The translations under genes and the position numbers were made by a program. A stretch of 64,000 nt of DNA from Streptomyces sp. NBC_00582 (GTDB lineage: Bacteria; Actinomycetota; Actinomycetes; Streptomycetales; Streptomycetaceae), in NCBI RefSeq assembly GCF_036345155.1, contig NZ_CP107772.1:1736001-1800000 (forward strand), read 5' to 3'. Below are positions 4,550 through 13,879 of this stretch, in pieces; positions within the stretch are counted from its first letter, which is position 1, and each line of letters starts with the position of its first letter. Under the pieces are notes generated by a model, which ran no database searches, was not told where the DNA came from, and saw only the letters and a list, made by a program, of their open reading frames with translations.

Positions 4550-4597
4550 CGCCTGCCGGCGGGGGGCCTTGGTGGGGTGCGGGTGGGTGGGGCTGGT

Positions 4598-4991
4598 CGC
4601 GCCGTTCCCCGCGCCCCTTCCAGGGCGGGTGCGGGACGGTGGGGGCTCCTCGCGCCGTTCCCCGCGCCCCTTCGAAGGCGGGTGCGGGACGGTGGGGGCT
4701 CCTCGCGCCGCTCCCCGCGCCCCTTCGAAGGCGGGTGCGGGACGGTGGGGGCTCCTCGCGCCGTTCCCCGCGCCCCTTCCAGGGAGGGTGCGGGACGGTG
4801 AGGGCTCCTCGCGCCGTTCCCCGCGCCCCTTCCAGGGCGGGTGCGGGACGGTGGGGGCTCCTCGCGCCGTTCCCCGCGCCCCTTCCAGGGCGGGTGCGGG
4901 ACGGTGGGGGCTCCTCGCGCCGCTCCCCGCGCCCCTTCCCGGGCGGGTGCGGGACGGTGGGGGCTCCTCGCGCCGTTCCCCGCGCCCCTGG
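4598..4991. repeat. tandem array of 53-bp repeats built on a common Streptomyces intergenic element
   Basis: Eight copies of a core reading CGCGCCGTTCCCCGCGCCCC begin at 4598, 4651, 4704, 4757, 4810, 4863, 4916 and 4969, always 53 bp apart. Each is followed by a GGGCGGGTGCGGGACGGTG-type spacer. Variants are few: TTCGAAGG in units 2-3, CAGGGAGG in unit 4, CCCGGGCGG in unit 7, and CTCC for TTCC in units 3 and 7. The first core follows GGCTGGT, as in the widespread single-copy element of streptomycetes. The array fills most of the 487-bp gap after gnd. Long open frames across it are repeat artefacts. Confidence 0.9.
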
Positions 4992-5746: not shown

Positions 5747-6166
5747 TCAGACGGAGACCGCGTGCGGACTGCGCCGCTGGTCGGAGCCCGGAACCGGCTC
5801 CGACGGGTCGGCCCCGAGGGCCACGATCCGGTTGTCGCCGTCCACGTGCACGACCCGCGGCTTCAGCGCCCTCGCCTCGGCGTCGGTGACCTGAGCGTAA
5901 CTGATGATGATCACCAGATCTCGGGGGTGCACGAGATGGGCGGCGGCACCGTTGATCCCGACCACCCCCGAGCCACGCTCACCCTCGATGACGTACGTCT
6001 CCAGCCGGGCGCCGTTGGTGATGTCGACGATGTGGACCAGCTCACCGGGCAGCAGATCGGCGGCGTCCAGCAGGTCGGCGTCGATGGTCACGGATCCCAC
6101 GTAGTGCAGGTCGGCCTGGGTGACGGTGGCGCGGTGGATCTTGGACTTGAACAGAGTACGCAGCAT
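5747..6166 (-). CDS. panD: aspartate 1-decarboxylase (pyruvoyl-dependent)
   Basis: 139 residues, the normal proenzyme length. It decarboxylates L-aspartate to beta-alanine for pantothenate and CoA synthesis. The self-processing site Gly24-Ser25 is intact in YVGSVTID; cleavage there makes the catalytic pyruvoyl group. [20 protein letters not shown] is the canonical N-terminus and [15 protein letters not shown] the substrate-site region. The ATG at 6166 follows AGGAGT; the upstream in-frame extension to 6211 has no family similarity. The gene marks the left border of the defence-like island. Confidence 0.97.
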
Positions 6167-6340
6167 TTGGACTCCTGAAAGACGGCTCCCTGCCCGCTTA
6201 CTGCAGGTCAAGGGCGGTCTTCACTCTACTGGGCACCTCGGACGCCAAGACTGTGAGGTACATCGCTTCGCCATGTCAGCTCCCGCACAGGCGAATTCAG
6301 GGAGCGGCGCTCGCGTGGGAGGGCGTGCCACCATGGTCGA

Positions 6341-7291
6341 ATGACTGGTGCGCGGTTCCAGATCCTGGCACTTGACGGTGGTGGGCTGCGGGGGATCTTC
6401 TCGGCCGCAGTGCTCGCGGCGTTGGAGGAGGACGCGGGCGTGAGGGTGGTGGATCATTTCGATCTGATCGCCGGAACGTCGACGGGCGGAATCATCTCAC
6501 TCGGCCTCGGCCTCGGAATGCGGCCGCGCGAGATACTCGACTTCTACCTCAGGCTGGGGCCGCGCGTGTTCAAGAACATGATGGGGCTCCGCACGGCACG
6601 CCAGCTCGTCCGGGCGAAATACGCATCGGGCCCGTTGGAGTCGGCGCTGCGCGAGGTCTTCGGCGATCGGACCTTCGGGGAGAGTTCCAAGCGGCTCGTC
6701 ATCGCCTCGTACAACCTCGGCGCCGACGACGTCTATCTGTTCCGGACGGCGCACCATCCGAGGCTCGCGCGTGACTGGCGGGAGCACGCGTACGCCGTCG
6801 CCATGGCCACGGTTGCCGCGCCGACCTATCTGCCGGGATATCCGCTGTCCGGCACGCGACTGGTCGACGGCGGGCTCTGGGCCAACAATCCGTCGATGAT
6901 CGCGCTGGTCGAAGCGGTCGGAACCTGTGCGGTGCCTCTCGACGCGCTGCACGTGTTCAGTCTGGGCACGACCACCGAAGCCCGTCATCGCAGCCGTCGA
7001 CTCGACCGGGGCGGGATGGTGCAGTGGGGCCGCGATGCCGTCGACGTCATCTTGCGCGCGCAGTCGATCAGTGCGAACAACCAGGTGCATCACCTGACAT
7101 CGCCACAGCGGTTGCTGCGCCTGAACCCGGTCGTTCCTGCTGGACTCACGGCGTTGGACAAGGTGGACGCCGACGATCTGATCGGCTGGGCCTCGCACTT
7201 GAGCCGGTCGGCGGGGCCGCGATTCAGGGAATTCCTTGAGCACAGGGCACCACGATTCGCACCCTTCCACGGCTCGAACGGTGCGGCCTGA
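6341..7291 (+). CDS. patatin-like phospholipase, CapV-type
   Basis: 316 residues. The patatin fold spans about 6-220: oxyanion loop DGGGLRG at 12-18, nucleophile Ser47 in GTSTG and catalytic Asp176 in DGG give an intact Ser-Asp dyad. In CBASS antiphage systems such enzymes (CapV) are switched on by a cyclic nucleotide and destroy the cell membrane. That role is suggested here by a CD-NTase gene 535 bases downstream on the same strand. No signal peptide or membrane helix is seen, as expected for a cytosolic effector. The ATG at 6341 has no strong ribosome site. A housekeeping lipase role cannot be excluded. Confidence 0.85.
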   Translation: MTGARFQILALDGGGLRGIFSAAVLAALEEDAGVRVVDHFDLIAGTSTGGIISLGLGLGMRPREILDFYLRLGPRVFKNMMGLRTARQLVRAKYASGPLESALREVFGDRTFGESSKRLVIASYNLGADDVYLFRTAHHPRLARDWREHAYAVAMATVAAPTYLPGYPLSGTRLVDGGLWANNPSMIALVEAVGTCAVPLDALHVFSLGTTTEARHRSRRLDRGGMVQWGRDAVDVILRAQSISANNQVHHLTSPQRLLRLNPVVPAGLTALDKVDADDLIGWASHLSRSAGPRFREFLEHRAPRFAPFHGSNGAA

Positions 7292-7314
7292 GTGCGATAC
7301 ACAAAAGATGTGCG

Positions 7315-7761
7315 CTACGGGGAATGCGCCGGTCCGGCGCTCTCGGCCACAGGCACCACGCTCAAATGGTAGATGGCGCCGGTCTTGTCGGCATACAGAC
7401 TGAACACGCCCATCCGACTCACCCCGTTGATATGCCAGTAGGTGTCGTCGACCAACACCATGTGGTACACCTGGCTGTCGAGGTGCCCAGCGCTGCTCAG
7501 CAGCAATTGAGCCTTTTGCAGCACCTGAGGGGAATCCAACTGGGGCCTGTGAGCCGACATGATGCCGCTCTCCGCGATAAGATCGGCGATCTTTCCGAGG
7601 TTTTTCGGGGACACACTGCGCAGGCTGCCGACAGCCAGCCGCAGAACCTCGGATCTCAGTCCAAGGTCATCGGCGCCGTCGGCGACATGGTCGCCCATGT
7701 CATCGTCCACCTCCAGGTACAGTCCGCCCCCGCCCTGAAGCGGGAATCCCAGAAATCCCAT
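7315..7761 (-). CDS. unrecognised 148-aa protein inside the CBASS-like locus
   Basis: I do not recognise this protein. It has a Gly/Leu-rich N-terminus (FPLQGGGG), an acidic stretch (EVDDDMGDHVADGADD), a helical middle and a beta-rich C-terminal part around VYHMVLVDDTYWHINGVSR. It looks like a real soluble protein rather than a shadow of the opposite strand. It lies between the patatin and CD-NTase genes but on the other strand: convergent with the first, divergent from the second with only 65 bases for both promoters. The ATG start lacks a good ribosome site and may be wrong by some codons. Confidence 0.65.
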   Translation of the reverse strand: MGFLGFPLQGGGGLYLEVDDDMGDHVADGADDLGLRSEVLRLAVGSLRSVSPKNLGKIADLIAESGIMSAHRPQLDSPQVLQKAQLLLSSAGHLDSQVYHMVLVDDTYWHINGVSRMGVFSLYADKTGAIYHLSVVPVAESAGPAHSP

Positions 7762-7826
7762 ACGTCCATCATGACAGCACCCGGACTCAGAACGGCGCGT
7801 GTCCAGGAAAGCGACTCGGGGTTCAG

Positions 7827-8750
7827 GTGTGGCCGGTGACGGGGACCGACCTCCATGACTTCAGGACATTCCTCGAACGGCACGTCAACATCGACAGAGC
7901 GCGTCTTCGGAGGCTGGAGGAGACGGTTCAACGACTCCAAGCGGCACTTCGGCGGCACGCGGGGTTCCGCGAGACCGAACCTCTGTTCCTGCCCCAGGGC
8001 TCATGGGCGCAGCAGACGATCATCGCTCCAGGGCGCCGAACCGACTTCGACGCGGATCTCCTCGTTTCCCGGCGGCCCGAGCCCTCGTGGAGTGCGAGAC
8101 CGGCCGAGTACCTGTACTCGTTGCAGGCGATGGTGGCCGAGAGTCTCGGGAGCCGGCACTCCGTCCGGGTGAAGACACGATGCGTCGAGGTGTCGTTCGA
8201 AGACCACCACGTCGACCTCGTCCCCTATGTCCCGCGGCCCTTCACAGGCAGCCTGTCACCCGGCTCCATCGTGAATCGCGCCGAGAACCGATTCGAGCCG
8301 GTCGACCCCGATGGCTTCACCCGATGGTTCCTCGACCGCGACAGCGCGGCCGGCGGGCATCTGCGCCATGTCACACGGTTGTTGAAGTTCGCCCGCGACC
8401 GGGAATCCGGGCTCGAAGTCCCGTCGGTCATCCTGACGGTTCTGCTCGGTCGGCAGATACGTCGTGCGACCGCGGCAGGCGGCGGCTACATCGATCTCCC
8501 GACCGCGCTCCGCACTGTTCTCACCGACCTGGCCCACTGGCTCTCCCTACGGCCGACGCTTCCCGAGATCGCCGACCCCAGCTGCTCGAAGGCCGAGTTC
8601 GGACACCGCCTGAACGCGCATTCCTATGGACGACTGCGAAGCTGGATCGCCGAGTGCTCCTTTCTCGTCGAGTCCGCCTCCACCGCTCAGGACGACACCG
8701 AGCGGCTCCGGTGCTGGCGGCTGCTGTTCGGAGACGGGTTCGGCGAGTGA
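7827..8750 (+). CDS. CD-NTase (CBASS oligonucleotide cyclase, SMODS-type nucleotidyltransferase)
   Basis: 307 residues. The nucleotidyltransferase signature is complete: Gly58-Ser59 in LPQGSWAQQT, metal-binding Asp73 and Asp75 in TDFDADL, and the third acidic residue Asp130 in VDLVPYV. The downstream helix region NRFEPVDPDGFTRWF and RLLKFARD followed by SVILTVLLG matches CD-NTases that make cyclic di- or trinucleotide alarm signals in CBASS. The product nucleotide cannot be told from sequence. The likely receptor is the upstream CapV-like patatin. The GTG at 7827 is tentative; a second GTG three codons on is equally possible. Its end lies 13 bases from the end of the convergent TPR gene. Confidence 0.85.
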   Translation: MWPVTGTDLHDFRTFLERHVNIDRARLRRLEETVQRLQAALRRHAGFRETEPLFLPQGSWAQQTIIAPGRRTDFDADLLVSRRPEPSWSARPAEYLYSLQAMVAESLGSRHSVRVKTRCVEVSFEDHHVDLVPYVPRPFTGSLSPGSIVNRAENRFEPVDPDGFTRWFLDRDSAAGGHLRHVTRLLKFARDRESGLEVPSVILTVLLGRQIRRATAAGGGYIDLPTALRTVLTDLAHWLSLRPTLPEIADPSCSKAEFGHRLNAHSYGRLRSWIAECSFLVESASTAQDDTERLRCWRLLFGDGFGE

Positions 8751-8763
8751 GAGTTCCCTCGGT

Positions 8764-10110
8764 TCATTCCGAACGTCCGTGCTCTGTCAGAAGGCGTTCC
8801 AGCGCGACTGAGCCGTTCCGCAGGTGTGGTGGGCCGCCTCCGCCGACGGCGCGGAGTTCCTCACCGTCCTCCATGTACGCGGGGAGCCGAGCGGGCCAGC
8901 CGCAGTCGACCGTCGGCGGCACCACCGACGGCATCTCGGACGCGGCGCTGTCCAGGGAGGTGATGCCCCGAGGCAGCTCCATCCCCGGCCGCAGCGTCGT
9001 GGCGCGCATGGCTTCGATCAGTTCGGCGAGCAGAGCGCTGTCACCGGAACCCGCCGCAAGTTCGAGTGCTTTTCCGGCGGCCTGCTCGGTCGCGGTCCGC
9101 CACTCGGCGCGCGCCGTCACCTCCGGCAGCCCCCAGGTCATCGATCGCATGACGGCCCAGGCGGGAACGACGTAGGACAACGCCCGTTCTGGATCACCAC
9201 TCCAGCTGACACCGAGATTGTGAACGGCATGCGCCAGCGCCAACCACTGTCCTGTATGCCGGTAGGACTCAGCGGCGGCTTCGAACCTCTCGCGAGCCAG
9301 GGAAAGGTCGCCGCCATCAAGAGCCATGATCCCGAGTCCGAGCAGTGAGTCGGCGATCTCGTGCTCACGATGGGTGGCCCGGTAGCCCTCCATGGCCCGC
9401 CGGTACAACTCGGCGGCCTCCGTCGGATTGCCCGAGACCCGGGCGAGCTCTGCCAGATTGTGGTCGAGCTGCGCCCACTTCGACGCCACGCCAAGGCGCT
9501 CGTACGTCGCGCGGGACCGTGTGAGGCGCACGTGTGCCTCCGCATAACGCGCCAAAGCCTTCAGCGCCAAGCCCGCGTTCTCGTCGACTTCGGCCATCTT
9601 GACCAGAAGAACGTCCCCTGACAACTGCGCTCGATAGCCGTCCTCCGCCGCAGACAGGTGACGCAAAGCCGCACCGCACTGCCCGAGCCCGATCAGCACC
9701 GCCGCGATGTTCACCCTGCAGTCGGCGGCTCTGACCAGGTCGATGCCTTCGATGCCGAGCAGAGCGCGATAGTAGTACCACCGTGCCCGGTAGAGGTCGC
9801 TACGTGTGTAGGCCACATTGCCCAGGTACTGCTCGACGAGCGCGACGGCGTGAAAGCTGGAGATGGCCACATATTGGTCACGCGCGCTGTTGTACAGACG
9901 GTCGGCCTCTTCGAGCTCATTGCGCATCCAGCAGATGGTGGCGAGATTGCAGACGACGTCTGCGGCCCGCCCCTTGTCGTCGATGGACTCATAGAGCTGG
10001 AGGGCGCGACCGTAGGACTGCTCGGCACTGTCCAACCTGCCGTCCGTAAGTGCTCTGTTGCCCTGCTCGAGGAGCTCGTCGGCTGCTCGCCGGTCGGCAC
10101 CGCCACTCAT
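8764..10110 (-). CDS. tetratricopeptide-repeat protein, last gene of the TPR-CHAT-TPR operon
   Basis: 448 residues, mostly helical repeats of the TPR type from about 10 to 360. Clear units include AEQSYGRALQLYESIDDKGRAADVVCNLA, written here only in part, and AAELYRRAMEGYRAT. The last 90 residues lack repeats and end in a Pro/Gly-rich stretch and a short helix. No enzyme motif is seen; a scaffold or sensor role is inferred. The ATG is four bases after the stop of the CHAT gene with no strong ribosome site, suggesting translational coupling. It converges on the CD-NTase gene. Confidence 0.85.
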   Translation of the reverse strand: MSGGADRRAADELLEQGNRALTDGRLDSAEQSYGRALQLYESIDDKGRAADVVCNLATICWMRNELEEADRLYNSARDQYVAISSFHAVALVEQYLGNVAYTRSDLYRARWYYYRALLGIEGIDLVRAADCRVNIAAVLIGLGQCGAALRHLSAAEDGYRAQLSGDVLLVKMAEVDENAGLALKALARYAEAHVRLTRSRATYERLGVASKWAQLDHNLAELARVSGNPTEAAELYRRAMEGYRATHREHEIADSLLGLGIMALDGGDLSLARERFEAAAESYRHTGQWLALAHAVHNLGVSWSGDPERALSYVVPAWAVMRSMTWGLPEVTARAEWRTATEQAAGKALELAAGSGDSALLAELIEAMRATTLRPGMELPRGITSLDSAASEMPSVVPPTVDCGWPARLPAYMEDGEELRAVGGGGPPHLRNGSVALERLLTEHGRSE

Positions 10111-10114
10111 GTCG

Positions 10115-11617
10115 TCACCGCACGCTGTCCGGCAGAACGTAGGTGAGGAGGCACGCCCAGGTGAGGGGCGCGGCCTGGCGGAGATCCTCCATCCGGACGG
10201 ACGACCTCCATGCGGCGAGCTGTCGGCATTGCCAGGTGCGGATGGCGGCCACCGGGTCGGCACTGTCGTGGGCCCGGTCGACTGCCAGAGCCATGGCTGT
10301 CGTCGCACCCTCGCCTGGACGCACCGTGTCGCCGATGACATGGACGGACTGGTCGGTCGGACAGGTCCACCTCGTGGTCGTCACGACGCGTGCTCCGGCG
10401 TTGACCGCGGCCAGAGTGAGCCCGGCCTGCTCCACATAACGGCTGTCGTCGGCTTCGCACGCGATCAGAGCGACACGGCGAGGCATCGGCCACCGATTCG
10501 GCGCGTGCAACCAGACCCGCGCACTCAGCGCATGCGCATCCGCGAGGTCTTCCAGCACCCTGCCGTCGTCGGCGCGCAGCGGTTCCTGATCCGTGTCGGT
10601 CTGCGCGGCCGTACTGAAACGCAAGGCCGAGGTCGTCGGGGAGACGGCGTCGCCGCTCTCGACGTGCCCGAGGAACAGCACTCGTGTCCACTCACGCCGA
10701 TTCAGGAGCTCGCCGAACGTCTCGCGCGTACACGCGCGCGACACGGTCTCGTGCTCTCGGTCGGACGGGGCCGTCCAGGACGTCGGCAACCCCGCGGGGT
10801 AGATCGGCGGTGCGTCCTCGGCCTGGCCGTCAGCGGTGGGGTCGATGATCCGCAGCGCGGGCCCGCCGACGATCTCGGGCGCCGCCGGTCGCGCCAGATC
10901 CACGAGTGAGGCAGGGCTGAGCCCGCCCCGGATGAAGGCCACCTCCACCGCGCGGAGGTCGTCCTCGTCCCGCACGACGAGGAGTTCCCAGGGAATCCGG
11001 CCGAGGTCCGGTCCCGGTGCGATCACGAGGGTCGTCGCGGGGGTCTCCTGTGGCCCGAACGACGCCAGATACTCGCGCAGGACGGGAGGCAGGAGCAGCG
11101 CCCCCAGTTTTCCGAACAGGTCGCGATTGGCGGCGCGATCGACCAACGGGCCGTTCCAGGCACGTCGCTTCGCCTCGTTCCGCTCCGATCGCAGTCGCAC
11201 GGCGATTTCCAGGAGCCGCGCCACGGCTTCCACGTCATCCGGGTCGCCGCTGTCTCCTTGGGGTTCGCCCAACTGCTCATGCAGTTCTCTCACCCGTCGG
11301 TCGGTCTCCTCGGAAACGCTTCCGGGCAGCCCCGCGATCATGCGTCCGACGAGCGGATGTACCTCGTCCCAGTCAACGGCGCCGGCACTCAACAGGATCT
11401 GTGACACGCCGCTCCCACCGTCGGCGAGCCGCTCACCCCGTGATGGGTCCGGTGAAGTCGTCACCGTCCCCCACACGGCCGGACTGACGCGCGCCCGCAC
11501 CGCGGCGGCCGCCTCGACCGGGTCGGCCGAGCTGGAAACCGCGGTCGTCCACCAATACAGCTTCTCCCCGGCCCGCCAATATCCCAGCCACCAGACAGTC
11601 GATACTGTGGAGTGCAA
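10115..11617 (-). CDS. CHAT-domain caspase-like protease
   Basis: 500 residues. The C-terminal half (about 190-500) is a CHAT domain, a caspase/separase-clan peptidase fold: PGPDLGRIPWELL near its start, catalytic His318 in FLGHVESGD and nucleophile Cys387 in ALIACEADD, then the usual GARVVTTT strand. The N-terminal 180 residues are helical and unassigned. CHAT proteases act in bacterial immunity (the TPR-CHAT partner of type III-E CRISPR, SAVED-CHAT, gasdermin activators), so a proteolytic step is plausible here; the target is unknown. The start is a TTG with GGGGGA upstream; no ATG is available nearby. It lies 18 bases after the first TPR gene. Confidence 0.85.
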   Translation of the reverse strand: MHSTVSTVWWLGYWRAGEKLYWWTTAVSSSADPVEAAAAVRARVSPAVWGTVTTSPDPSRGERLADGGSGVSQILLSAGAVDWDEVHPLVGRMIAGLPGSVSEETDRRVRELHEQLGEPQGDSGDPDDVEAVARLLEIAVRLRSERNEAKRRAWNGPLVDRAANRDLFGKLGALLLPPVLREYLASFGPQETPATTLVIAPGPDLGRIPWELLVVRDEDDLRAVEVAFIRGGLSPASLVDLARPAAPEIVGGPALRIIDPTADGQAEDAPPIYPAGLPTSWTAPSDREHETVSRACTRETFGELLNRREWTRVLFLGHVESGDAVSPTTSALRFSTAAQTDTDQEPLRADDGRVLEDLADAHALSARVWLHAPNRWPMPRRVALIACEADDSRYVEQAGLTLAAVNAGARVVTTTRWTCPTDQSVHVIGDTVRPGEGATTAMALAVDRAHDSADPVAAIRTWQCRQLAAWRSSVRMEDLRQAAPLTWACLLTYVLPDSVR

Positions 11618-11635
11618 CGTCGGATCCCCCGATGG

Positions 11636-13429
11636 TCACGGCAACAGGACGTTCAGAACAGGGACTACCTCGGTCGAGAGTCTGATGCCGTTGCCGGGAC
11701 CGGTGTCGGTTTCCGACGCGGATTCCCGCACACCGAGGATGTGCCGCGCTCTCCGGATGAACGGTTCGAGCTCGGAGTGCGGAGCGCACTCCACCACCGC
11801 CGCAAAGGTCACGGGAAGCGACGACAGATCGTCGTCCTGGTCCGCGTCAGGCAGCTCAGGACGACCAGGATGCGCCAGATCCAGGCCACCGATCGCCCGC
11901 GCACGCTCGATCATCTCAGCAAGGAGGAGCGGCGTCCCGGACATGAGCCCGGCGTCGAACGCCGCGGCGGCGTGTCTGCCGATCTCCTCGCGCCACAGCG
12001 TCCGTTCCACCGGCGCACGGAACGTGAATCGCGCCGCCTCGAGAGCGATCCATGCCGAAATCACCCGGTCCCTGCGTTCCGAGGTGTCGCTCGGCCAGGT
12101 CAGACCCTCGTTGTGGAGGCACCTGGCCACGCGCGCCCAGAGCCCCAGTTCCCGGAAGCTGAGCTCCGCTTTCGCGTAACGTCGCCGTGCGTCCTCGAAA
12201 TTTTCGGTCGCCGCATCCACAATTCCCAGGTTCATATCGAGATCGGCGACGGCCAGGGGTTGTTTCAGCTTTTCGAACGACCTCTGTGCGGTGCTGTAGC
12301 AGGCGCGCGCCCTGTCCCATTCCTTCATGCCCGCATACGCGACGCCGAGATTCAGCTCGATACTCGCCGTTGTCAACTCGGTCGCATCGATCGCACCCGC
12401 CCGGGCGGCGAACAGTGTGTCGATCGCTTCGGACCATTCCTCCTGATCGCACTTGACGACACCGAGGTTGAGCCGGGTCTCGGTCACTTCACGGCTCAGT
12501 CCGTGCCTCTCATAGGTTTCGAGAGCCTCTCCATAGGCGGCGGCCGCACCGGCGTGGTTGCCGATCCGCCTTTCCACTGCCGCCATGCCGCACATGAGTC
12601 GCGCGCTCTCGAGCTCCATGTCCATGTCCGAGAACATGCGGTGGGCTCGGCGCATGAGCCGGAGGGCACGTGCGTAGCGGCCCGTCTGCATGAGGACATA
12701 GCCCTGATTGGTCAGCACGTCCGCGAGTTCGCGCGGCAACCGAAGCTCGCGGTAGATCGCCTCCGCCTCCTCGAGCAGTGAGCCGGCGGCGCTGTAGCGT
12801 CCGTGGCGAGCGAAGAGAGTCGCCAGGGTCGTGTCCGCGGCGGCAAGTCTGTGCGAGTTGTCGAGCGCTGCTGAATCGACGGGGTCCGCATCGCCTGTGT
12901 GCGCGGTTCCGGCGCTGAGGATGTCGGTCCGGAGCTCGGTCAGCAACCGCTCGGCTTCCGCGAGTTGACCGGATCGTTCGACCAACACCGCCATGTTCAA
13001 CCGTACGTCCAGCGCGGCCGGCAACTGCCCGTGCCGCTCGTACAACTCCTGGGCACGGCGATAGTGGTCGGCGGCCGCACGGAGTTCATTGAGGCGACGT
13101 GCCAGAATGCCGGCCGTCATCCGCACGTTCGCCTCATGTGTGTCGAAGGCCGTCTCGCCGTTACCGGGCGCCAGGTTGAGGGCTTCGTCAACGATCTCGC
13201 GGGCTTGCGCCAGATTGCCGCACCGCATCAGCGCCAGGCCCAGGTTGTGCAGGGCCGCGGATGTCTCAAGCCTCGCGCCGAGTGCGGAGAACCTCCTGGC
13301 CACATCCTGGAAGATCGCCGCGGCCTCGATGTGGCGGCCTTGTCGCAGAGCGTCGAGTCCTTTCGCGTTGTGCGCCGCCGCAACCGCGGCACGGTTGTCG
13401 CCGGAGTGAGAGCTCTGCGGATTCTCCAC
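11636..13429 (-). CDS. tetratricopeptide-repeat protein, first gene of the TPR-CHAT-TPR operon
   Basis: 597 residues of TPR-type helical repeats over most of the length (about 15-470), for instance AAAHNAKGLDALRQGRH, AEAIYRELRLPRELADV and YSTAQRSFEKLKQPLA. The C-terminal 120 residues are non-repeat helical. The open frame runs on to 13861, but the upstream part is a shadow of the AraC remnant. A GTG at 13429 starts the repeat protein. A TATCGT six bases before that GTG could be a -10 box for a leaderless transcript. It is likely a partner or sensor for the CHAT protease. Confidence 0.82.
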   Translation of the reverse strand: MENPQSSHSGDNRAAVAAAHNAKGLDALRQGRHIEAAAIFQDVARRFSALGARLETSAALHNLGLALMRCGNLAQAREIVDEALNLAPGNGETAFDTHEANVRMTAGILARRLNELRAAADHYRRAQELYERHGQLPAALDVRLNMAVLVERSGQLAEAERLLTELRTDILSAGTAHTGDADPVDSAALDNSHRLAAADTTLATLFARHGRYSAAGSLLEEAEAIYRELRLPRELADVLTNQGYVLMQTGRYARALRLMRRAHRMFSDMDMELESARLMCGMAAVERRIGNHAGAAAAYGEALETYERHGLSREVTETRLNLGVVKCDQEEWSEAIDTLFAARAGAIDATELTTASIELNLGVAYAGMKEWDRARACYSTAQRSFEKLKQPLAVADLDMNLGIVDAATENFEDARRRYAKAELSFRELGLWARVARCLHNEGLTWPSDTSERRDRVISAWIALEAARFTFRAPVERTLWREEIGRHAAAAFDAGLMSGTPLLLAEMIERARAIGGLDLAHPGRPELPDADQDDDLSSLPVTFAAVVECAPHSELEPFIRRARHILGVRESASETDTGPGNGIRLSTEVVPVLNVLLP

Positions 13430-13556
13430 AGGCCCACGATAGGCGAAAACCCAATCCGCTGACGGAGGTTGAGGGCTCGGCACAGGGAGGCCGACGGTGC
13501 GGCTTCTCCGCGCGGTGTCGCCCTTGTCCCTGGCCGGGGGTCGACGACGGTCCGGG

Positions 13557-13827
13557 GCCCCTCGGCGCGTCCCCGGACCCCGTTGCGGAAGTCGATCGGG
13601 GAACGGCCGGTGCGTCGCACGACGTACTTGCTGAACTGGGAGGGCGTGACGAAGCCGAGGCGGTCCGAGATCTGGGCGGCGGTCTCGTCGCCGTGCGCCG
13701 GCAGACGCTTCGCCTCCGGCACGACCCGGCGGTCGATGAACTCCTTCGCGCTGAGCCCGGAGGCAGCCAGGGTCGCCCGGGCGAGGGTGCGTCCCGAATG
13801 GCCGAGCATGTGGGCGTGCGCGGGCAC
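13557..13827 (-). pseudogene. AraC-family regulator remnant (C-terminal HTH domain)
   Basis: About 90 codons encode an AraC-type DNA-binding domain: GLSAKEFIDRRVVPEAKRLL-like helix one, then ISDRLGFVTPSQFSKYVVRRTG, the typical second helix-turn-helix. The sensor domain is missing, an in-frame stop precedes the fragment at about 13858-13860, and the frame runs without a proper stop into the TPR gene region. It is a 5'-truncated gene at the right edge of the defence-like island. Confidence 0.7.
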
Positions 13828-13879
13828 CCGCCCCTGACACGGCGTCGCCGGATCCGGTCACGGGCGGGCGTTCCGCGGC

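What the first reader, a model, noticed from the sequence alone, without database searches (positions are those of the whole stretch)
6341..13429. CBASS-like cyclase and patatin beside a TPR-CHAT protease-TPR operon: possible new composite defence system
The sequence shows a patatin with intact Ser47/Asp176, a CD-NTase with a complete G-S and D-x-D motif, and on the other strand an operon of TPR, CHAT (His318/Cys387) and TPR genes, all packed between panD and a broken regulator. CapV with a CD-NTase is a known minimal CBASS, and CHAT/TPR proteases are known immune effectors in other systems. I am not aware of a described CBASS class with a TPR-CHAT-TPR module. Inference: the protease could be a second effector, an ancillary regulator of the cyclase, or an independent neighbour in a defence island.
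Basis: partly seen in the sequence, partly recalled or inferred. Interest (0 to 1): 0.75.

Follow-up and report, generated by a model that had tools for sequence, protein, structure and literature searches.

The report
CBASS linked to split caspase-like protease
A soil bacterium carries, in one apparently foreign block, a known two-gene antiviral alarm (a signal-making enzyme and a membrane-cutting enzyme) next to a rare three-gene caspase-like protease, and the signal-making enzyme and the protease turn up together in two other lineages, hinting at an alarm system with a protease arm.

Summary
Patatin plus CD-NTase is an ordinary minimal type I CBASS. The CHAT protein models as the pseudo-caspase plus caspase unit of Csx29/separase without its TPR half, so the operon looks like a split TPR-CHAT protease. 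The family is rare: 23 hits in a 5.8-billion-protein search, one locus in a pattern scan of 84,980 species. Co-occurrence is clade-specific: in two other lineages CHAT and CD-NTase lie on one contig, with parallel divergence; patatin and TPR genes could not be checked there. Farther out they are apart: a Geodermatophilus has the operon and no SMODS gene, and 15 CD-NTase relatives lack CHAT, patatin and TPR neighbours. The simplest reading is a portable protease module that joined a minimal CBASS and stayed. Functional coupling is plausible, not shown. New variant of a known kind.

The parts
5747..6166 (-). panD (aspartate 1-decarboxylase): conserved left neighbour; synteny with relatives ends just upstream of it
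Evidence: Match at E <= 1e-20 in 54 of 61 genus genomes. In the 29 best relatives' places for which loci were given, homology to the window ends at 6215-6271 in 26 and at 6165-6181 in 3.
6341..7291 (+). CapV-like patatin phospholipase, CBASS effector (316 aa)
   Evidence: Pfam PF01734 E 1.5e-30; NCBIfam NF041079 over its cut-off; closest solved chains 9wn1, 9wn0, 9kh6, 9kh7, E 4e-43 to 5e-42, named 'Patatin' or 'CBASS cGAMP-activated phospholipase'; Ser47/Asp176
7315..7761 (-). Orphan gene, 148 aa, between patatin and CD-NTase on the strand of the protease operon
   Evidence: GC3 0.779; homologues in two other Streptomyces records, one with the locus tag next to that of the S. europaeiscabiei CD-NTase; weak match to a small gene beside the Geodermatophilus operon; model too poor to interpret (pLDDT 47.7)
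7827..8750 (+). CD-NTase (SMODS), CBASS cyclase (307 aa)
   Evidence: SMODS E 1.7e-17; PADLOC cyclase E 5.7e-82; G-S, D-x-D, third Asp; the only SMODS match in the genome
8764..10110 (-). TPR-B, second TPR subunit (448 aa from the ATG at 10110)
   Evidence: TPR_12 E 2.2e-18; Geodermatophilus counterpart 38% identical, same gene order
10115..11617 (-). Stand-alone CHAT protease (about 500 aa), Csx29/separase-like, His318/Cys387
11636..13429 (-). TPR-A, first TPR subunit (597 aa from the GTG at 13429)
   Evidence: TPR_12 E 6.5e-29; Geodermatophilus counterpart 41% identical
13468..13830 (-). AraC-family HTH fragment without N-terminal part, at the right edge of the block
   Evidence: HTH_18 E 1.3e-15; in-frame stop shortly upstream; GC3 0.884, like the flanking genes

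Best explanation
The 7.1-kb block is one acquired defence locus made of two modules that are inherited together in this clade. Module 1 is a complete minimal type I CBASS: on infection the CD-NTase makes a cyclic nucleotide that switches on the CapV-like phospholipase, which degrades the membrane (inferred from family membership). Module 2 is a split separase-like protease: the CHAT subunit carries the pseudo-caspase and caspase domains, and the two TPR subunits stand in for the TPR half that is fused to CHAT in Csx29. The most likely working (inferred) is that the TPR subunits hold CHAT inactive until they meet an infection cue, after which CHAT cuts a specific partner protein. The likeliest substrate is the small orphan encoded between patatin and cyclase, or the cyclase or patatin itself, so that proteolysis sets the threshold of, or adds a second arm to, the CBASS response. 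Shown here: the genes, their intact catalytic motifs, the predicted CHAT fold, the compositionally uniform block, and co-occurrence of CHAT and CD-NTase in two other lineages. Not shown: defence or protease activity, the substrate, any cross-talk, or that patatin and TPR genes accompany them in those lineages.
For: Family assignments. CHAT fold equals the CHAT half of Csx29 and of separases. Gene order TPR-A, CHAT, TPR-B conserved in Geodermatophilus at 38-49% identity. Same longest-contig length for CHAT and CD-NTase homologues in two lineages: 11,915,655 (S. europaeiscabiei; CHAT 85%, CD-NTase 83%, orphan 71%) and 1,170,358 (CHAT 56%, CD-NTase 58%) (recomputed). Parallel identities: window to S. 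europaeiscabiei 85.2 (CHAT) and 82.6 (CD-NTase); window to P0008 / P0032 66.5 and 61.6; P0008-P0021 79.9 (82.7 over the first 300 residues) and P0032-P0033 84.8. The six genes share GC3 0.78-0.82, the six named flanking genes 0.88-0.97. In S. europaeiscabiei the orphan (OHO28_38775) and the CD-NTase (OHO28_38770) bear neighbouring locus tags. Precedent: TPR-gated Csx29 makes a single cut in Csx30 (PMC10028731, passages read).
Against: Geodermatophilus sp. DF01-2 carries the operon and has no CD-NTase match with the window's protein and no SMODS match, where the same search finds the window's own and 3 of 14 control genomes; so the protease does not need this CBASS there. 15 of 15 CD-NTase places at 36-41% lack the other genes in the flanks fetched. 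The modules are convergently transcribed. A shared 11.9-Mb or 1.17-Mb contig shows one genome, not adjacency. On the 1.17-Mb contig the CHAT frame stops at 325 aa, before the catalytic residues, and no orphan was found there. A third orphan homologue (Streptomyces sp. NPDC054829, 80,411-bp contig) shares no contig length with the CHAT or CD-NTase lists, though clustering at 90% could hide partners. By global alignment the Geodermatophilus CHAT (52.9%) is not far below P0021 (58.1%), so the clade border is soft. No nucleotide-sensing domain seen in CHAT or TPR proteins.
Confidence: 0.5

Rival explanations
1. Two independent defence modules share one acquired island: a type I CBASS and a separate TPR-CHAT-TPR protease system, inherited together only because they travel on the same DNA.
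For: Operon without a SMODS gene in Geodermatophilus; CD-NTase relatives without it; convergent transcription; the site upstream of panD is variable in 10 of 10 relatives examined at length.
Against: CHAT and CD-NTase have stayed in one genome down to 56-58% identity, in a CHAT family with a full-length match in 1 of 392 genus genomes; the orphan sits inside the CBASS pair and is next to the CD-NTase by locus tag in a second species.
Confidence: 0.37
2. The protease is a second CBASS effector switched on directly by the cyclic nucleotide, as I recall it for SAVED-CHAT in type III CRISPR.
Against: No SAVED or other nucleotide-sensing domain matched in the three proteins; CHAT residues 5-497 are accounted for by pseudo-caspase and caspase domains; the operon exists without a SMODS gene.
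Confidence: 0.08
3. The TPR-CHAT-TPR module is not defence but a signalling or developmental protease of actinomycetes that happens to lie beside CBASS.
Against: Very patchy distribution (full-length in 1 of 392 genus genomes, 1 of 112 genomes of the Geodermatophilus family) and atypical GC3 fit an accessory gene better.
Confidence: 0.05

Closest known systems
Type I CBASS with CapV phospholipase
   Same: CD-NTase plus one patatin effector, both with intact active-site motifs; patatin over the NCBIfam CBASS lipase cut-off
   Different: An opposite-strand orphan between the two genes and an adjacent three-gene protease module; no Cap2/Cap3 or HORMA/TRIP13-type gene among the frames scanned
Csx29 (TPR-CHAT) of Craspase, type III-E CRISPR
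   Different: CHAT and TPR are separate genes, with two TPR genes; no Cas gene among the frames scanned next to it; no sequence match to any solved chain
Separase
   Different: Bacterial, split over three genes, far smaller
SAVED-CHAT protease
   Different: No SAVED sensor domain found; two TPR subunits instead
VMAP-type conflict systems with Trypco1
   Same: The orphan has a faint Trypco1-like N-terminus (E 0.084 in one of three homologues); Trypco genes accompany trypsin-like peptidases in those systems (PMC7159879, passages read)
   Different: Match not clearly above shuffles; the peptidase here is CHAT, not trypsin-like

Membership tests
Type I CBASS | CD-NTase with G-S and D-x-D catalytic motif | tested here: met
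Type I CBASS | One effector gene with the CD-NTase, here a CapV-type phospholipase with Ser/Asp dyad | tested here: met
   NF041079 247.8 bits against 200. The orphan gene lies between the two.
Type I CBASS | No ancillary genes of type II (Cap2/Cap3) or type III (HORMA/TRIP13) in the locus | tested here: met
   none among the six genes of the block or the 10 flanking frames scanned; the rest of the genome was not searched
Type I CBASS | Cyclic nucleotide activates the effector and protects from phage | not testable with these tools
   needs biochemistry and plaque assays
TPR-CHAT protease (Csx29/separase group) | Pseudo-caspase plus active caspase fold | tested here: met
TPR-CHAT protease (Csx29/separase group) | Catalytic His and Cys | tested here: met
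   H318 and C387 in the 90%-conserved list of 17 rows; the truncated P0021 lacks that part
TPR-CHAT protease (Csx29/separase group) | TPR domain fused to CHAT in one chain | tested here: not met
   TPR are two separate genes here and in Geodermatophilus
SAVED-CHAT | SAVED nucleotide-sensing domain | tested here: not met
   no such match in the Pfam scan of CHAT and TPR proteins; CHAT residues 5-497 align to caspase-type domains
Trypco1 (orphan gene) | Match to PF19493 over its cut-off | tested here: inconclusive
   13.9 bits against 24.6 in one of three homologues; hhalign probability 29, and scores at the level of shuffles
Conserved CBASS + TPR-CHAT-TPR composite | CHAT and CD-NTase co-occur in other lineages of the clade | tested here: met
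   shared contig in 2 lineages; a further pair, P0008/P0032, undecided
Conserved CBASS + TPR-CHAT-TPR composite | All parts adjacent in other lineages | tested here: inconclusive
   only orphan and CD-NTase adjacency seen, by locus tag in one species; patatin and TPR genes not looked for there

The most novel reading that the evidence does not exclude
A CBASS variant with a proteolytic arm: a split separase-like protease (TPR-A, CHAT, TPR-B) and its small substrate or inhibitor, encoded between cyclase and effector, license or amplify cyclic-nucleotide abortive infection, so that one locus joins cGAS-like signalling with caspase-like proteolysis.
Probability: 0.3. Interest if true: 0.82.

Novelty: new variant of a known kind. 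Interest (0 to 1): 0.58.

Why it matters
CBASS regulation is known through ubiquitin-like (Cap2/Cap3) and HORMA/TRIP13 partners; a protease partner would be a new layer and a bacterial parallel to the meeting of cGAS-type signalling with caspases in animals. The split TPR-CHAT-TPR architecture is itself a compact way to study how TPR subunits gate separase-like proteases, and it occurs without CBASS, so the two parts can be tested apart.

Tried and rejected
Trypco1 membership of the orphan: looked for because the N-terminus resembles it. One of three homologues matched at E 0.084. A profile from 13 of the 14 Trypco1 places (L068, with the same score as L065, left out) gave hhalign probability 29; with hmmsearch P0151 scored 7.3 bits against 6.8 for the best of 800 shuffles, P0152 6.1 bits, below or level with three shuffles, and P0002 itself was not in the rows printed. 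Not claimed.

Orphan versus the small gene upstream of the Geodermatophilus operon: hhalign E 1.2e-4, probability 56, 22% identity; 7.6 bits against 4.0 for the best of 200 shuffles; that gene itself shows no Trypco1. A lead, not a result. The second small Geodermatophilus gene has only a match at E 0.084.

Structure of the orphan: pLDDT 47.7, no fold match at E <= 0.001. CHAT against sequences of solved structures: no match up to E 0.1. PADLOC: no match for CHAT or TPR-A; TPR-B touches PDC-S39 at E 3.3e-4, 17.5 bits, through TPR repeats. Promoter and terminator scan of the block: none found.

Right border: five relatives with TetR orthologs at 78-85% share no neighbouring gene with the window in 18-19 kb, apart from further TetR copies and a 62% match at the edge of L119; no border repeats of 14 nt or more within either border stretch (each was searched for itself, not against the other) and no tRNA in 1-25000. 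So the right border rests on GC3 and the AraC fragment. A crude list of long frames over the whole window, not checked for being genes, has GC3 from 0.65 to 0.97, so low GC3 alone is no proof of origin.

Wider sampling for the CHAT family: genus 31 of 392 at E <= 1e-10, of which only the window's own is full length, the other 30 genomes giving partial matches at 31-47% identity; relatives 1 of 150; class 4 of 394 at E <= 1e-30, only the window's own below 1e-50; family 1 of 365; family of the Geodermatophilus 1 of 112; draws overlap. Viral contigs: 14 pattern matches, none confirmed. Phages: none. Plasmids: 9 records, partial matches below 36% identity.

The neighbour test used stop-to-stop frames of 70 aa or more and E < 1e-3; the CD-NTase was found in all 15 places, but there was no positive control for patatin, CHAT or TPR, and several contigs end near the gene.

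The contigs of P0008 (14,304 bp) and P0032 (9,249 bp) could not be read. Contig lengths were compared for 23 CHAT clusters and 119 CD-NTase clusters (120 listed of 188 found, one without a length).
Full report
What is there. The window lies at 1,736,001-1,800,000 of contig C1 of an 11.1-Mb genome. Between panD and an AraC fragment at 13468-13830 lie six genes: patatin (+), a 148-aa orphan (-), CD-NTase (+), then convergently TPR-B, CHAT and TPR-A (-). Domain scans confirm patatin, SMODS/DncV-like NTase, CHAT and TPR. PADLOC assigns patatin and CD-NTase, and NCBIfam the patatin, to CBASS; the nearest solved chains of the patatin are named 'Patatin' or 'CBASS cGAMP-activated phospholipase', those of the CD-NTase are CD-NTases and cyclic nucleotide synthases at E 1e-7 or weaker.

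One block. GC3 is 0.78-0.82 in the six genes and 0.88-0.97 in panD, GNAT, 6PGD, the AraC fragment, TetR and SHMT. In the 29 relatives' panD loci at hand, nucleotide homology to the window ends at 6215-6271 in 26 and at 6165-6181 in 3. In 10 of 10 longer loci nothing upstream of panD is shared with the window in matches over 150 bases, and little among the relatives, apart from L153 and L156, which share sequence from about 12 kb on. So this is a variable site. The right edge is less certain.

Co-occurrence. Searches give for each protein cluster the length of its longest contig. Two lengths occur in both lists (recomputed): 11,915,655 (S. europaeiscabiei: CHAT 85%, CD-NTase 83%; also the orphan at 71%) and 1,170,358 (CHAT 56%, CD-NTase 58%). 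The CD-NTase and orphan of S. europaeiscabiei bear neighbouring locus tags, OHO28_38770 and OHO28_38775. A further pair, P0008 (CHAT, 14,304-bp contig) and P0032 (CD-NTase, 9,249-bp contig), cannot be decided, but P0008 is to P0021 about what P0032 is to P0033 (79.9, or 82.7 over 300 residues, against 84.8% identity). Below these, by local alignment, the next CD-NTases are at 45% or less and the next CHATs at 48% or less; by global alignment the Geodermatophilus CHAT is at 52.9% against 58.1% for P0021, a narrower gap. Of the other 21 CHAT clusters none shares a contig length with the 119 CD-NTase lengths compared (188 CD-NTases found, 120 listed). A full-length CHAT match is rare in the genus (1 of 392) and CD-NTase relatives occur in 15 of 392 genomes, the window's own included, so repeated independent assembly is unlikely; joint inheritance is the simple reading. 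A shared contig is not adjacency, and patatin and TPR genes were not looked for in those lineages.

Against a general class. The Geodermatophilus genome has no match to the window's CD-NTase and none to the SMODS family, in a search that finds the window's own gene and rings in 3 of 14 control genomes; its contigs may be incomplete. All 15 CD-NTase places found in 14 other genus genomes, with 8 to 19 kb fetched around each, lack a CHAT, TPR-A, TPR-B, orphan or patatin match at E < 1e-3; several lie near contig ends. So even the patatin pairing is not shared by these CD-NTases. On the 1.17-Mb contig the CHAT frame ends at 325 aa, before the catalytic part: a decayed gene or an assembly error; it was not mended. 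A third orphan homologue, in Streptomyces sp. NPDC054829, shares no contig length with the CHAT or CD-NTase lists, though partners could hide in 90% clusters.

How it probably works. CBASS arm: the cyclase senses infection, its product activates the phospholipase, the membrane fails (established CBASS knowledge; definition of type I read in PMC10419184, passages). Protease arm: TPR-gated CHAT makes specific cuts. The orphan is the best candidate for substrate or regulator because it lies inside the CBASS pair, on the protease strand, is next to the cyclase by locus tag in a second species, is less conserved than its neighbours (70% against 83-85%), and has a faintly similar counterpart beside the Geodermatophilus operon. 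These are inferences. No nucleotide sensor is visible in the protease proteins, so direct activation by the cyclic nucleotide is disfavoured.

Literature. Searches for 'CHAT protease' + CBASS + TPR (1 paper), three of CHAT domain, patatin, SMODS, TPR (4 papers), CBASS + protease + CHAT + caspase, TPR-CHAT, CBASS + ancillary + type I CBASS + CapV, CBASS + Streptomyces + CHAT and 'CHAT domain' + CBASS (none) showed no title or abstract start describing such a locus. Apart from passages of PMC10028731, PMC10419184 and PMC7159879 only listings were seen; subscription papers and preprints are not in the library.

Verdict. The coupling is a testable hypothesis.

Noticed in passing
window 6165-6271 and loci L150-L159: The stretch directly upstream of panD is a variable site: 10 of 10 relatives examined share nothing there with the window. 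Of 10 coding-like frames sampled from 9 of these loci, two (L151, L158) have an MZB (MrfA Zn-binding) domain; the others match TetR_N, aminotransferase, AzlC, ABC transporter, ferric reductase, DUF7379, SpoIIE and phosphoesterase families.
   Followed up: partly
L047:643-1068 (-) and L047:5933-6400 (+): Two small genes flank the Geodermatophilus TPR-CHAT-TPR operon; the first resembles the window orphan faintly, the second has no significant family.
   Followed up: partly
L052:4935-12359, L053:4925-12010, L054:1-9032: Rhodococcus plasmids carry another CHAT arrangement: two uncharacterised proteins of about 440-540 aa followed by a stand-alone CHAT, with TPR genes on the opposite strand in two and upstream on the same strand in the third, and an NYN-domain gene nearby in all three (annotation; Pfam for the first two).
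   Followed up: partly
P0021 (1,170,358-bp contig): CHAT homologue whose frame ends at 325 aa before the catalytic residues while the CD-NTase on that contig keeps its motifs: possible decay of the protease arm or an assembly error.
   Followed up: no
window 4575-4989: Tandem array, period 53, 7.8 copies, 95% matches, just right of the 6PGD gene.
   Followed up: partly
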